From NCBI RefSeq assembly GCF_045679555.1, contig NC_092091.1, positions 74,463,580 through 74,527,579 of the forward strand: a stretch of 64,000 nt of DNA, given 5' to 3'. The stretch is from Salvelinus alpinus (Eukaryota > Chordata > Actinopteri > Salmoniformes > Salmonidae). The position numbers were made by a program, and so were the translations under genes. Below, one piece after another: positions 35,299 to 43,673 of this stretch. Within the stretch, counting starts at the first letter, position 1, and each line of letters starts with the position of its first letter. The notes under the pieces were generated by a model. That model saw nothing but the letters and a program-made list of their open reading frames with translations, was not told the DNA's origin and did not search any database.

Positions 35299-35654
35299 AC
35301 TGTTAATCATCTGTGTGATGTGATCGATCAGTTTATTCGCATTCAGAATTAAAATGATTTATTGTATTTTAACAGCAACAGTTCAAGCCTAGACAGATAT
35401 GAGTGTTTTTAATGGAGAAAAATAAACATGAATAAATATTTATATGGGTATTGAAATTCATTGTTATCTGTTTTTGTTTATATTGAATTTGTTTTAGGCA
35501 TAAGGGCAATGAAATGTACCAATATTTACACATAGCTGTATATTTTCATAACCTTGGGTCCCAAATAACATAGAATTTCTAATTTGGGTCCAAGGCTGAA
35601 AAAGTTTAAGAACCCCTGCTTAGATACAGGGACAGAGTCAAAGGTGGCCCTCTG

Positions 35655-36474
35655 GTGGTTGTAGTACTAACTACAGGTACAGCTGTAGTGTTGGTGACAG
35701 AGACCTGGGTGGATGTAGTACTAACTACAGGTACAGCTGTAGTGTTGGTGACAGAGACCTGGGTGGATGTAGTACTAACTACAGGTACAGCTGTAGTGTT
35801 GGTGACAGAGACCTGGGTGGATGTAGTACTAACTACAGGTACAACTGTAGTGTTGGTGACAGAGACCTGGGTGGATGTAGTACTAACTACAGGTACAGTT
35901 ATAGTGTAGTGACAGAGACCTGGGTGGATGTAGTACTAACTACAGGTACAGCTGTAGTGTTGCTGACAGAGACCTGGGTGGATGTAGTACTAACTACAGG
36001 TACAGCTGTAGTGTTGGTGACAGAGACCTGGGTGGCTGTAGTACTAACTACAGGTACAGCTCTAGTGTTGCTGACAGAGACCTGGGTGGATGTAGTACTA
36101 ACTACAGGTACAGCTGTAGTGTTGGTGACAGAGACCTGGGTGGATGTAGTACTAACTACAGGTACAGCTGTAGTGTTGGTGACAGAGACCTGGGTGGCTG
36201 TAGTACTAACTACAGGTACAGCTGTAGTGTTGGTGACAGAGACCTGGGTGGCTGTAGTACTAACTACAGGTACAGCTGTAGTGTTGGTGACAGAGACCTG
36301 GGTGGATGTAGTACTAACTTCAGGTACATCTGTAGTGTTGGTGACAGAGACCTGGGTGGATGTAGTACTAACTACAGGTACAGCTGTAGTGTTGGTGACA
36401 GAGACCTGGGTGGATGTAGTACTAACTACAGGTACAGCTGTAGTGTTGGTGACAGAGACCTGGGTGGATGTAGA
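35655..36474. repeat. 54-bp minisatellite, about 15 units
   Basis: Unit: gtactaactacaggtacagc, tgtagtgttggtgacagag, acctgggtggat. The period is 54 bp (for example 35,661 to 35,715), a multiple of three, with very little divergence between units. One unit near 35,903 has a net one-base loss. Confidence 0.95.
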
Positions 36475-38340: not shown

Positions 38341-38366
38341 AACTATCACGTTATACTGTTCAAATC

Positions 38367-38549
38367 AGAGGAGGCTGGTGGGAGGAGCTATAGGAGAACG
38401 GGCTCATTGTAATGGTTGAAATAGAATCAATGGAATGTTACCAAACACGTAAAACACATGAAAACAACGTGTTTAACCTTTTTCCATTGATTCCATTCCA
38501 GCCACTACAATGAGCCCGTACTCCTATAGCTCCTCCCATCAGCCTCCAG
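38367..38549. mobile_element. Palindromic MITE
   Basis: cagaggaggctggtgggagg at the left and its complement (cctcccatcagcctcc) at the right, with mirrored attgattccattccagcc. Relative of 25,507-25,682. It lies just upstream of the TESK1-like exons. Confidence 0.75.
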
Positions 38550-38719
38550 ACAGACACACAGTAACACCTCCCTTCACTTCATCTTGCCCTAATCGTTCAT
38601 TTCATCTCTCACACACACTCATATGCTCTCTCTCTCCTTTCTCTCTCATAGAACTGTCTGGTGCGCTGTGAGAATGGTGTGTTCACTGCAGTAGTGGGAG
38701 ACTTTAGTCTGGCAGAAAA

Positions 38720-38986
38720 GATTCCAGACTACAGGTTAGTACTGTGAGAAGATTCCAGACTACAGGTTAGTGCTGTGAGATGATTCCAGACTACAGGTTA
38801 GTGCTGTGAGAAGATTCCAGACTACAGGTTAGTGGTGTGAGAAGATTCCAGACTACAGGTTAGTGCTGTGAGATGATTCCAGACTACAGGTTAGTGCTGT
38901 GAGAAGATTCCAGACTACAGGTTAGTGCTGTGAGAAGATTCCAGACTACAGGTTAGTGCTGTGAGAAGATTCCAGACTACAGGTTA
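38720..38986 (+). repeat. 31-bp minisatellite spanning an exon/intron junction, block 1
   Basis: Unit gattccagactacag|gttagtgctgtgagaa: 15 bases are the 3' end of the kinase exon and 16 the start of the intron. About 8.6 units. The first unit is the true exon end at 38,734. Confidence 0.95.
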
Positions 38987-39150
38987 CATTACATTTACAT
39001 TTAAGTAATTTAGCAGACGCTCTTATCCGAGCGACTTACAAATTGGAAAGTTCATACATATTCATCCTGGTCCCCCCATGGGGAATGAACCCACAACCCT
39101 GGCGTTGCAAGCGCCATGCTCTACCAACTGAGCCACACGGGACCGTGTGG
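38987..39150 (-). mobile_element. tRNA-derived SINE inside the 31-bp array
   Basis: On the minus strand: tggctcagttggtagagcat (A-box) and gggttgtgggttcattcccc (B-box-like), then a 3' part ending taaatgtaaatgtaatgtaa. It interrupts the 31-bp repeat and has no intact tRNA fold or discriminator, so it is a SINE and not a tRNA gene. Confidence 0.8.
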
Positions 39151-40539
39151 TTAGTACTGTTAGTACTGTGAGAAGATTCCAGACTACAGGTTAGTACTGT
39201 GAGAAGATTCCAGACTACAGGTTAGTGCTGTGAGAAGATTCCAGACTACAGGTTAGTGCTGTGAGAAGATTCCAGACTACAGGTTAGTGCTGTGAGAAGA
39301 TTCCAGACTACAGGTTAATGCTGTGAGAAGATTCCAGACTACAGGTTAGTGCTGTGAGAAGATTCCAGACTACAGGTTAATGCTGTGAGAAGATTCCAGA
39401 CTACAGGTTAGTGCTGTGAGAAGATTCCAGACTACAGGTTAGTGCTGTGAGAAGATTCCAGACTACAGGTTAGTGCTGTGAGAAGATTCCAGACTACATG
39501 TTAGTACTGTGAGAAGATTCCAGACTACAGGTTAGTGCTATGAGAAGATTCCAGACTACAGGTTAGTGCTGTGAGATGATTCCAGACTACAGGTTAGTAC
39601 TGTGAGAAGATTCCAGACTACAGGTTAGTGCTGTGAGAAGATTCCAGACTACAGGTTAGTGCTGTGAGAAGTTTCCAGACTACAGGTTAGTACTGTGAGA
39701 AGATTCCAGACTACAGGTTAGTGCTGTGAGAAGATTCCAGACTACAGGTTAGTTCTGTGAGAAGATTCCAGACTACAGGTTAGTGCTGTGAGAAGATTCC
39801 AGACTACAGGTTAGTGCTGTGAGAAGATTCCAGACTACAGGTTAGTACTGTGAGAAGATTCCAGACTACAGGTTAGTGCTGTGAGAAGATTCCAGACTAC
39901 AGGTTAGTGCTGTGAGATGATTCCAGACTACAGGTTAGTGCTGTGAGAAGATTCCAGACTACAGGTTAGTGCTGTGAGAAGATTCCAGACTACAGGTTAG
40001 TGCTGTGAGAAGATTCCAGACTACAGGTTAGTGCTGTGAGAAGATTCCAGACTACAGGTTAGTGCTGTGAGAAGATTCCAGACTACAGGTTAGTGCTGTG
40101 AGAAGATTCCAGACTACAGGTTAGTGCTGTGAGAAGTTTCCAGACTACAGGTTAGTGCTGTGAGAAGATTCCAGACTACAGGTTAGTGCTGTGAGAAGAT
40201 TCCAGACTACAGGTTAGTGCTGTGAGAAGATTCCATACTACAGGTTAGTACTGTGAGAAGATTCCAGACTACAGGTTAGTGCTGTGAGAAGATTCCAGAC
40301 TACAGGTTAGTGCTGTGAGAAGATTCCAGACTACATGTTAGTACTGTGAGAAGATTCCAGACTACAGGTTAGTGCTGTGAGAAGATTCCAGACTACAGGT
40401 TAGTGCTGTGAGATGATTCCAGACTACAGGTTAGTACTGTGAGAAGATTCCAGACTACAGGTTAGTGCTGTGAGAAGATTCCAGACTACAGGTTAGTGCT
40501 GTGAGAAGTTTCCAGACTACAGGTTAGTGCTGTGAGAAA
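39151..40539 (+). repeat. 31-bp minisatellite spanning an exon/intron junction, block 2
   Basis: About 45 units of the same 31-bp sequence. Nearly all keep cag|gttagt, the exon end plus donor. Variants include gttaat, catgtt, and agatga or agtttc at the unit edge. The last units degenerate near 40,540. Confidence 0.95.
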
Positions 40540-40782
40540 GTTCTCCAGATTACAGGAAGACTATATGACTCGCTCCCCATATTCCCATCATGACTGCACA
40601 TATAGCCTTAAATACATCATACATTGTATTCTGTTTTTCTCTCCTGAAAAATCAATGTTCTATAAGAATGAGTTTTTTTCCTCTCCTCCAGTGACGGGGC
40701 TGATCAGCAGCCTCTGGCTGTGGTGGGCTCCCCCTACTGGATGGCCCCGGAGGTGCTGAGAGGAGAGCTCTATGATGAAAAG

Positions 40783-41063
40783 ATACTAACAGTACTCTAC
40801 TGTTTCCTGGCTGTTATCGCACTGGTCCGAGTGCATAATAAGAGGAAGCAAACACAGTAATGCAATACAATAGTACTATGCTATAATGCAATCTGGAAGG
40901 ACAACTGTTCCATGTTCCTGCTGTGTTTTTCTGGGTGTGTCTAGTGGGTCTTGCTAATATGTATATTTCTAGCAAATGACCAGACTCTTTCAAGGTGTAT
41001 TATTGTGAATATGCCAAGAGAGATGTTATTGATCAGATGTGATTGGCTGACTCTGACCCCTAG
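40783..41063 (+). other. Kinase pseudogene intron
   Basis: Between exons 40,692-40,782 and 41,064-41,145. The donor position reads atactaac instead of gt, and the acceptor tgacccctag is intact. Confidence 0.6.
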
Positions 41064-41145
41064 GTGGATGTGTTTGCTTATGGAATCATCCTGTGTGAGT
41101 TCATCGCCCAGATAGAGGCTGATCCGGACTTCCTTTCTTCCTGAG

Positions 41146-41333
<188 letters not shown>

Positions 41334-42121
41334 CCCCAGTTAATGACATGCACACAGTTAACCAATGTTTTTCCGTTTTACACGATCACACAACCCTAAA
41401 TCAAGGCTTTACTACTATCACACAACAAACGGACAGTGTATGAACAAACCCTTAACCCAACCCTTTCACCACCACTGCACAACCCCAGTAGGTCTACTAT
41501 CAAATAGCACCATAGAATATTTTTTTCCACTTTGACCCAGAAAAGAAGTACCCTCCTTTCCCTTATTGAACATAATCACATGTAACTGCTGTGGAGGACT
41601 TGAGTACTGAATCAATCTAGTACATTGTAGAGGTTCCATTCTTGTTTTAATGTTTAATGAGTAGAACTCTATCACAGTGTGTGTCTCCATTGAGTAAATA
41701 CTGTGTAGAAATACAACATGTAAATATTTTAAACCTAGTCAGACAAACTGATTTACAGCTAGTCGGCTACATTAAAAGATGATGATGATGGTTTTCTGTG
41801 TGTGCAGGACTTTGGGCTAGACGTTGGTTGCCTTTGAGAACCTGGTCGGTGACTATCGGACACCATTCCTCAACCTTGCAGTCCTCTGCTCTAATTTAAA
41901 ATACAATAACAGACAGACTGACAGACAGACATAATTGCATGCATCCATGACTCTGTGTACATACTTACTGTAAATGCATAGATTGACAACCTCAAAGCCT
42001 TGACCTTCACCTCTCCCACCGCTGCCAGTCCCTCCCCTGCACCCCCGAGCTGGGGCGAACCCTCGCCCCCCTCCTCCGGGACCCCGACCTGCAGAGCTTG
42101 GGGAAAGACGAGGAAGAAGAG

Positions 42122-43122
42122 GTGGAGGATGAAAGGAGAAGGGAGGGATGGTGGAGGATGAAAGGTGGAAGGATAAAGGAGGGATGGTGGAGGATGAAAG
42201 GAGGAAGGATAAAGGAGGGATGGTGAGGATGAAAGGAGGAAGGTTAAAGGAGGGATGGTGGAGGATGAAAAGAAGAAGGATAAAGGAGGGATGGTGGAGG
42301 ATGAAAGGAGGAAGGATAAGGGAGGGATGGTGGAGGATGAAAGGAGGAAGGAGAAGGAGAAGGGAGGGTGGAGGATGAAAGGAGGAAGGATAAAGGAGGG
42401 ATGGTGGAGGATGAAATGAGGAAGGATAAAGGAGGGATGGTGGAGGATGAAAGGAGGAAGGAGAAGGGAGGGATGGTGGAAGATGAAAGGAGTAAGGATA
42501 AAGGACGGATGGTGAAGGATGAAAGGAGTAAGGATAAAGGAGGGATGGTGGAGGATCAAAGGAGGAAGGATAAAGGAGGGATGGTGGAGGATGAAAGGAG
42601 GAAGGATAAAGGAGGGATGGTGGAGGATGAAAGGAGGAAGGAGAAGGGAGGGATTGTGGAGGATGAAAGGAGGAAGGAGAAGGGAGGGATGGTGGAGGAT
42701 GAAAGGAGGAAGGAGAAGGGAGGGATGGTGGAGGATGAAAGGAGGGAGGATAAAGGAGGGATGGTGGAGGATGAAATGAGGAAGGATAAAGGAGGGATGG
42801 TGGAGGATGAAAGGAGGAAGGATAAGGGAGGGATGGTGGAGGATGAAAGGAGGAAGGAAAAGGGAGGGATGGTGGAGGATGAAAGGAGGAAGGAGAAGGG
42901 AGGGATGGTGGAGGATGAAAGGAGGAAGGAGAAGTGAGGGATGGTGGAGGATGAAAGGAGGAAGGATAAAGGAGGGATGGTGGAGGATGAAAGGAGGAAG
43001 GAGAAGGAGGGATAATGGAGGATGAAAGGAGGAAGGATAAAGGAGGGATGGTGGAGGATGAAAGGAGGAAGGAGAAGGGAGGGATGGTGAGGGATGAAAG
43101 GAGGAAGGATAAAGGAGGGATG
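42122..43122 (+). repeat. 36-bp minisatellite in the last kinase exon
   Basis: About 28 units of gataaaggagggatggtgga, ggatgaaaggaggaag (12 codons, for example DKGGMVEDERRK). It lies between VED codons that flank it, GTG at 42,122 and GTG at 43,123. The 1,001-bp distance is not a multiple of three, so the array shifts the frame. Long frames on both strands, including PPPSLLYPSSFH on the minus strand, are products of the period. Confidence 0.95.
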
Positions 43123-43673
43123 GTGGAGGACATGTCAGATGATTCAGGGCTGCTTCTGGACCTGGACATGGTGTCTCTGGAAGAGGAAGAGGAAGAGGAG
43201 GAAGCTTTTTCTCTGGGGGAGCCTATGGACTGCAGCAGGTCTCCTGACACATTAGAGGGCGCTGTCCCAACACCAGGGAGACGTCTACTACACCCAGCCT
43301 CGTTCTCTTCCTCCTTGTTTCTGCAGCCTAACGGCTGGGGCTATCCAGTCTCCAACTCCCCTCCCCCTCCCTCCCTCATCTCCCCCATCTGGACAACAAC
43401 AACGGCTCGGCGACGGTGGTCGTCGGACGTCCGATTGGCTGGAGGGATAGCAGCTTCCGCACTGCAATCCTGGACCCCCCTGCTGGCCCCGCCCCTGAGC
43501 AAGATGAGTTAATTTCCTGTCTGGGCTGCTGTCTTATTGGATTGAGCTTTCCTTCTTTGTGCCTGAAGGAGGCGAATGGTCTCGCTCCTCTGACCGCGCC
43601 TTGTGTGCCTTGGCTGCCTCTACCGGAGGGACAGACTTAAGTAGGGCTCCCCCTAGTGGGCTGACTGACAAAG

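What the first reader, a model, noticed from the sequence alone, without database searches (positions are those of the whole stretch)
38652..40539. A 5' splice site amplified into about 53 tandem copies
The 31-bp minisatellite unit is exactly the end of a TESK1-like exon plus the start of its intron (15 + 16 bases), so almost every unit presents cag|gttagt. The first copy is the real exon end. If the locus were transcribed, the spliceosome would face dozens of equal donors 31 bp apart. Since 31 is not a multiple of three, each choice changes the frame. I know of no named case of a donor array of this size. It is a natural test of donor choice by position.
Basis: partly seen in the sequence, partly recalled or inferred. 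Interest (0 to 1): 0.8.

Follow-up and report, generated by a model that had tools for sequence, protein, structure and literature searches.

The report
Tandem splice donors in fish kinase gene
A splice signal at the end of one exon of a salmon-family kinase gene has been copied into a row of 53 here; the local copy of the gene is dead, but one apparently complete copy nearby carries 17 such signals and could be used to test how cells choose among equal splice sites.

Summary
A 31-bp unit that spans the end of a TESK-like exon and the start of its intron repeats 53 times (window 38720-40538), and 48 of the 53 read CAG|GTTAGT (0.76 expected by chance in the whole window).

The reading needs four corrections.
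(1) It is not a single locus. The same exon end plus array was found at seven places within about 345 kb of the chromosome, with 30, 17, 24, 41, 53, 31 and 47 units.
(2) The window copy is a dead fragment: no exon found upstream of the arrayed one, next donor GT>AT, following exon frameshifted to a stop. One copy (c2, 17 donors) looks like a complete, open kinase gene. That is the useful test case.
(3) Frame is not the issue. An in-frame TGA 11 bases past donor 1 means every later donor gives the same truncated protein.

Most likely this is a neutral minisatellite born on an exon boundary and spread by segmental duplication, with donor 1 favoured in c2 by cross-exon proximity. No RNA was available, so donor use is untested. 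New member of a known kind.

The parts
38652..38734 (+). exon A of a TESK1/2-like kinase (NCLVRCENGVFTAVVGDFSLAEKIPDY), 83 nt; its last 15-17 nt are the exonic half of unit 1
38720..40538 (+). 31-bp donor array: 53 units, 48 with CAG|GTTAGT; donor 1 at 38734|38735
38745..38747 (+). in-frame TGA just past donor 1; any donor from 2 on includes it (product ends ..KIPDYRLVL)
   Evidence: sequence
38987..39150 (-). tRNA-derived SINE with UnaL2-type tail inserted in unit 9 (tRNA part 39069-39142, UnaL2 39000-39052); outer limits approximate; no such gap in the other six arrays
40534..40559 (+). diverged terminal unit without a donor (CAG|GAAG here), present in the 7 copies with small changes
40692..40782 (+). 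exon B (DGADQQPLAVVGSPYWMAPEVLRGELYDEK); followed by AT instead of GT at 40783-40784
41064..41144 (+). exon C remnant (VDVFAYGIILCEFIAQIEADPDFLSS*), frameshifted end and stop
41830..41895 (+). exon D remnant
42020..43637 (+). last-exon remnants, including the 36-bp coding minisatellite 42133-43130 (RRKEKGGMVEDE), with a stop inside

Best explanation
A minisatellite born on an exon-intron boundary. In the C6-type TESK gene of a salmonid, a 31-bp piece covering the end of exon A and the start of its intron was duplicated and expanded in tandem. The gene region was then copied around the chromosome several times, so seven arrays exist. They change length by internal duplication, loss and exchange, and are mostly neutral. 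In the window copy nothing is spliced in a useful way, because the gene fragment is dead. [quoted passage not shown] later donors would give one and the same truncated, NMD-prone message.
For: Shown: 53 units and the real exon end; seven copies on one chromosome, with all listed matches to the unit there; unit counts 30/17/24/41/53/31/47; array absent from the C11 paralogue, which has a single CAG|GTCAGT donor and a 2174-bp intron in which the unit is not seen; c4 and c7, 99.4% identical downstream over the 315 bp held for c4, differ by 6 units, with a block repeated inside c7; c5 is 99.8% like c4 and c7 upstream of the array but about 95% downstream, as exchange within arrays would leave; unit positions vary inside and outside the donor; window copy has no upstream exon found, and broken splice sites and frames; c2 has all exons found, open; every donor from 2 on gives the same TGA in 7 of 7 copies; the region is rich in minisatellites, 63 arrays in 277.7 kb. 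For a donor-1 preference: Carranza 2022 (first part of Results read) found that two identical donors in exon-defined minigenes (365-nt introns) gave the upstream donor exclusively. Of 18 salmonid proteins read, 17 join KIP(D/V)Y to (S/C)D as donor 1 predicts; whether those species carry the array is unknown.
Against: No RNA data. The same paper finds downstream donors preferred when introns are short, and in about 60% of all 4,171 events before strength is matched; c2's introns are 144 nt upstream, and 686 nt (donor 1) to 190 nt (donor 17) downstream, so the rule gives no single clear answer. One salmonid model, the partial Oncorhynchus masou P0136, reads past donor 1 to the stop, and one of the 18 (Hucho P0023) has another junction. 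Donor positions vary slightly less than other unit positions (20/2052 against 83/5016, Fisher p 0.03), though shared descent makes that test weak. Arrays are shorter in c2 and c3 (17, 24) than in the five dead copies (30-53), one-sided rank p 0.048, which could hint at constraint.
Confidence: 0.72

Rival explanations
1. The array in c2 works as a dimmer: a fraction of splicing goes to downstream donors, always yields the TGA message, and so lowers kinase output, more so with more units.
For: All alternative donors give the same premature stop; 16 of 17 c2 donors are intact CAGGTTAGT; arrays are shortest in c2 and c3; precedent that IFI6 transcripts use downstream repeat units as donors (passage of PMC4526556); one Oncorhynchus masou gene model reads past donor 1.
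Against: No RNA or species conservation to support it; identical competing donors in exon-defined minigenes gave the upstream donor exclusively; arrays in the dead copies keep mostly perfect donors too, so intact donors are no sign of function.
Confidence: 0.12
2. The arrays are bound by U1 snRNP without splicing and act as a U1 platform, for example suppressing premature 3' end formation in the intron.
For: Each intact unit pairs 8 of 9 bases with the U1 5' end (duplex -7.9 against -11.8 kcal/mol for the consensus).
Against: No sign of selection on unit number was seen; five of seven arrays sit in dead fragments; none of the other 56 of 63 minisatellites in the fetched region has a donor scoring 8 of 9.
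Confidence: 0.05
3. The array length is an assembly artefact (expanded or collapsed).
For: Raw reads are not available; tandem repeats are prone to such errors (general knowledge).
Against: Seven separate arrays with their own lengths, unit variants and, in the window, a SINE; each spans 1.9 kb or less, shorter than common long reads (general knowledge).
Confidence: 0.06

Closest known systems
Human 6-16 / G1P3 / IFI6 minisatellite (Turri, Cuin and Porter 1995, NAR 23:1854)
   Same: A minisatellite that supplies multiple splice donor sites; downstream repeat units are used as donors (title in reference lists; introduction passage of PMC4526556).
   Different: From recall, IFI6 has a 12-bp unit, about 26 copies, and gives extended isoforms; here the unit is 31 bp, arrays have 17-53 units at seven paralogous places, and every alternative donor gives a stop. 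The paper itself is not held.
Rainbow trout irak3 boundary repeats (PMC6763605, passages seen)
   Same: A salmonid gene in which the first 15-17 nt of exon 5 are repeated four times in intron 4, directly upstream of exon 5.
   Different: Acceptor side, four copies, not a large donor array.
Competing identical 5' splice sites in minigenes (Carranza, Shenasa and Hertel 2022, PMC9225289)
   Same: Asks which of several equal donors is chosen by position; abstract and first part of Results read.
   Different: Two engineered donors, not a natural array.
TESK1/TESK2 kinases of salmonids
   Same: Exons of c2 match the Salvelinus namaycush protein P0003 at 89-100% each; 96% over the part from exon A on.
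   Different: Whether those species carry the array cannot be seen from proteins.

Membership tests
Minisatellite that provides splice donors (IFI6 type) | tandem units each holding a donor consensus | tested here: met
   48 of 53 units CAGGTTAGT in the window; 224 of 243 over the seven arrays (per-copy counts, total)
Minisatellite that provides splice donors (IFI6 type) | array continuous with the true donor of an exon | tested here: met
   unit 1 is the exon A end in 7 of 7 copies
Minisatellite that provides splice donors (IFI6 type) | several of the donors used in mRNA | not testable with these tools
   no RNA data; one partial Oncorhynchus masou gene model (P0136, on a 5.6-kb contig) ends ..KIPDYRLVL, i.e. 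reads past donor 1
Functional TESK kinase gene (window copy) | complete open kinase domain with intact splice sites | tested here: not met
   no exon upstream of A found in the window; exon B donor AT; exon C frameshift
Functional TESK kinase gene (copy c2) | all exons present and open | tested here: met
   551 codons open from exon A on; upstream exons found. One search counts 2 TAG in its longer match to exon 2 of c2; the shorter match has none, so I place them past the exon edge. Splice sites of the upstream exons were not all checked
Regulated unproductive splicing | alternative choice introduces a premature stop | tested here: met
   same TGA for every donor from 2 on, 7 of 7 copies
Regulated unproductive splicing | alternative isoforms made and degraded; conserved | not testable with these tools
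   no transcripts and no other salmonid DNA held

The most novel reading that the evidence does not exclude
In the apparently complete copy c2 the 17-donor array is a working length-dependent dimmer: donor choice spreads over the array, all choices but the first are discarded by NMD, and gains or losses of units tune kinase output.
Probability: 0.1. Interest if true: 0.75.

Novelty: new member of a known kind. Interest (0 to 1): 0.45.

Why it matters
How the spliceosome picks among equal donors has, in the work I saw, been studied with pairs of donors. Here one genome holds seven natural arrays of 17 to 53 nearly identical donors behind the same exon, one of them in an apparently complete gene where only the first donor gives the full protein. 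RNA from one fish could show directly whether position alone decides. It also shows a minisatellite growing on an exon boundary.

Tried and rejected
RNA hairpins as selector: each unit can form a small hairpin around the donor, but the stretch of exon A plus the first units (38652-38858) folds no better than shuffles (z -0.54; 59 of 200 shuffles at least as good), and the units share it; dropped.

Selection on donors: donor positions vary a little less than the rest of the unit (228 inner units; first and last unit of each array and the SINE-junction unit left out), but units are not independent; not taken as evidence.

Coding constraint on c2: c2 and c3 differ by 2 synonymous and 1 non-synonymous change in the HRDLTSK exon plus A-D, too few to use; dead copies against c2 give dS 0.037-0.080 and dN 0.028-0.058 over the parts of exons A-C compared, also few changes. 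c2 against the C11 paralogue gives dS 1.25, dN 0.094, which shows long-term constraint but not the present state. A first C11 comparison used a wrong exon edge and was redone.

Array in other salmonids: only proteins are held. A search for the read-through product listed 120 of 299 proteins; scanning the 242 proteins then held found one, the partial Oncorhynchus masou model, ending RLVL. It shows the same intron start there, not the array.

Papers: 10 searches were answered; three found no paper. That I found no larger donor array in print rests on these alone.

Full report
What is there. The window lies at G000:C6:74463580-74527579 of a 2.37-Gb genome. The closest proteins are from charrs (Salvelinus, 96-97% over 96-100% of the query) and other salmonids (Salmo trutta 95-96% over about half of it), so this is a salmonid. 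At 38652-38734 is an exon of a TESK1/2-like kinase (exon A; records name the relatives TESK1-like or TESK2-like). From 38720 its last bases and the first intron bases repeat every 31 bp, 53 times, with one SINE inside. 48 of 53 units read CAGGTTAGT; shuffles of the window give 0.76 on average.

Seven loci. A search of the whole genome with exon A and its donor gave 235 matches, of which the listed ones are all on C6, with the exon at seven places between 74.254 and 74.597 Mb (8 of 8 first-look candidates scored; the tool calls such counts lower bounds). A search with array sequence alone gave 76 matches, all in these seven places (7 of 7 candidates scored). I number them c1 to c7 along the chromosome; c5 is the window. 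Unit counts are 30, 17, 24, 41, 53, 31, 47, 243 in all. GT is kept at all donors except two in c1. The C11 paralogue has one donor, CAG|GTCAGT, and a 2174-bp intron in which the unit is not seen. So the array arose in the C6-type gene before its local copies were made, or spread among them by exchange.

Live and dead copies. With a Salvelinus protein cut into exons as query, c2 (minus strand) shows the first exon, N-lobe exons, the HRDLTSK exon, A, B, C, D and the last exon. From exon A on it is open for 551 codons. c3 shows no first exon in the fetched 200 kb and has a frameshift in its last exon. c1, c4, c5, c6 and c7 show no exon before A. For c4, c6 and c7 only about 1.5 kb upstream is held, but the 583 bp compared match c5 at 99.0-99.8%. 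All five have AT in place of GT after exon B. c1, c4, c6 and c7 have a TGA in exon B; c5 does not. Exon C is frameshifted in c1, c5, c6 and c7 (not held for c4). The window copy is therefore a dead fragment.

How arrays change. Downstream of the array (to early exon C), c2 and c3 are 99.4% alike over 1124 bp, c4 and c7 99.4% over the 315 bp held for c4, c5 about 95% to the other dead copies, and the dead copies 91-93% to c2. Upstream, c5 is 99.8% like c4 and c7, and c4, c5 and c7 start their arrays with the same two variant units; the contrast with 95% downstream suggests exchange inside the arrays. c4 and c7 share most of their unit map (36 units aligned identical of 41 and 47) but differ by 6 units, with the variant block 8g-5a-8a present once in c4 and twice in c7. 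This is ordinary minisatellite turnover. The five dead copies have the longer arrays (30-53 against 17 and 24; one-sided rank p 0.048). The coding 36-bp minisatellite of the last exon is also longer in the two dead copies in which it is held in full (27.7 units in the window and 26.8 in c1, against 5.2 in c2 and in c3). The copies are related, so this is a hint only.

What donor choice would do. I joined exon A up to each donor with exon B for all seven copies. With donor 1 the c2, c3 and c5 frames stay open through exon B; c1, c4, c6 and c7 meet their exon B stop. With any later donor all seven meet the same TGA, 11-13 bases past donor 1. Each intact donor pairs 8 of 9 bases with U1, with U at +3 as the mismatch.

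Expected choice. Carranza and colleagues (PMC9225289, abstract and first part of the Results read) report a downstream preference in about 60% of all donor pairs. Among donors of near-equal strength, proximity decides: nearest across the intron when introns are short, nearest across the exon when they are long; in minigenes with identical donors and 365-nt introns only the upstream donor was used. In c2, exon A is 83 nt, the upstream intron is 144 nt, and the downstream intron runs from 686 nt (donor 1) to 190 nt (donor 17). The array itself lengthened the intron seen from donor 1. I expect donor 1 to dominate, in line with the open frame of c2, but this is inference and the short introns speak against certainty. 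Of 21 proteins read (18 salmonid, 3 outgroup), 20 join this exon to the next as donor 1 predicts; the exception is the Hucho model P0023. Of two further salmonid models, Coregonus P0185 joins as expected and Oncorhynchus masou P0136 reads past donor 1 to the stop. Whether those species carry the array is unknown.

Chance and region. The stretch is full of minisatellites: 63 non-overlapping arrays (unit 12 bp or more, 5 copies or more) in 277.7 kb of fetched C6; only the seven TESK arrays hold a donor with 8 of 9 consensus bases, while 10 others reach 7. An array landing on an exon edge in such a region is uncommon but not astonishing.

Known kinds. The 1995 title on 6-16/IFI6 and a passage on its use of downstream repeat units as donors make this a new member of a known kind, with more units (by recall of IFI6) in five of the seven arrays and in seven parallel copies. 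A rainbow trout gene has a small acceptor-side counterpart. What was not possible: RNA, raw reads, DNA of other salmonids.

Noticed in passing
window 42133-43130; C6 74289421-74289609, 74362644-74362832, 74251777-74252741: 36-bp coding minisatellite (RRKEKGGMVEDE) in the last TESK exon: about 5 units in c2 and c3, about 27 in the dead copies c1 and the window.
   Followed up: partly
window 35654-36473: A 54-bp minisatellite (15 units, 96%) whose unit holds CTACAG|GTACAG, a weaker donor-like site; no TESK exon was matched there.
   Followed up: no
window about 38361-38547: Inverted-repeat element (MITE-like by my own reading, no search) just upstream of exon A in the five dead copies, where c2 and c3 have the intron and the HRDLTSK exon.
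   Followed up: no
window 38968-39180: SINE insertion in unit 9, seen only in the window array, followed by a 9-bp tandem duplication TTAGTACTG.
   Followed up: partly
L049 (C11 53541501-53545500): In the C11 paralogue exons B and C are one exon, while the C6 copies, and apparently C23 and C30, have an intron there.
   Followed up: no
C6 74391592-74408512: A 63-bp repeat with about 271 copies, 16.9 kb.
   Followed up: no
C6 74211493-74211771 and 74977202-74977297: Further TESK last-exon fragments outside the seven loci; no array there in the listed matches.
   Followed up: partly
protein P0136: Partial Oncorhynchus masou TESK model ends KIPDYRLVL, i.e. reads past donor 1 to the same stop; on a 5.6-kb contig.
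   Followed up: partly
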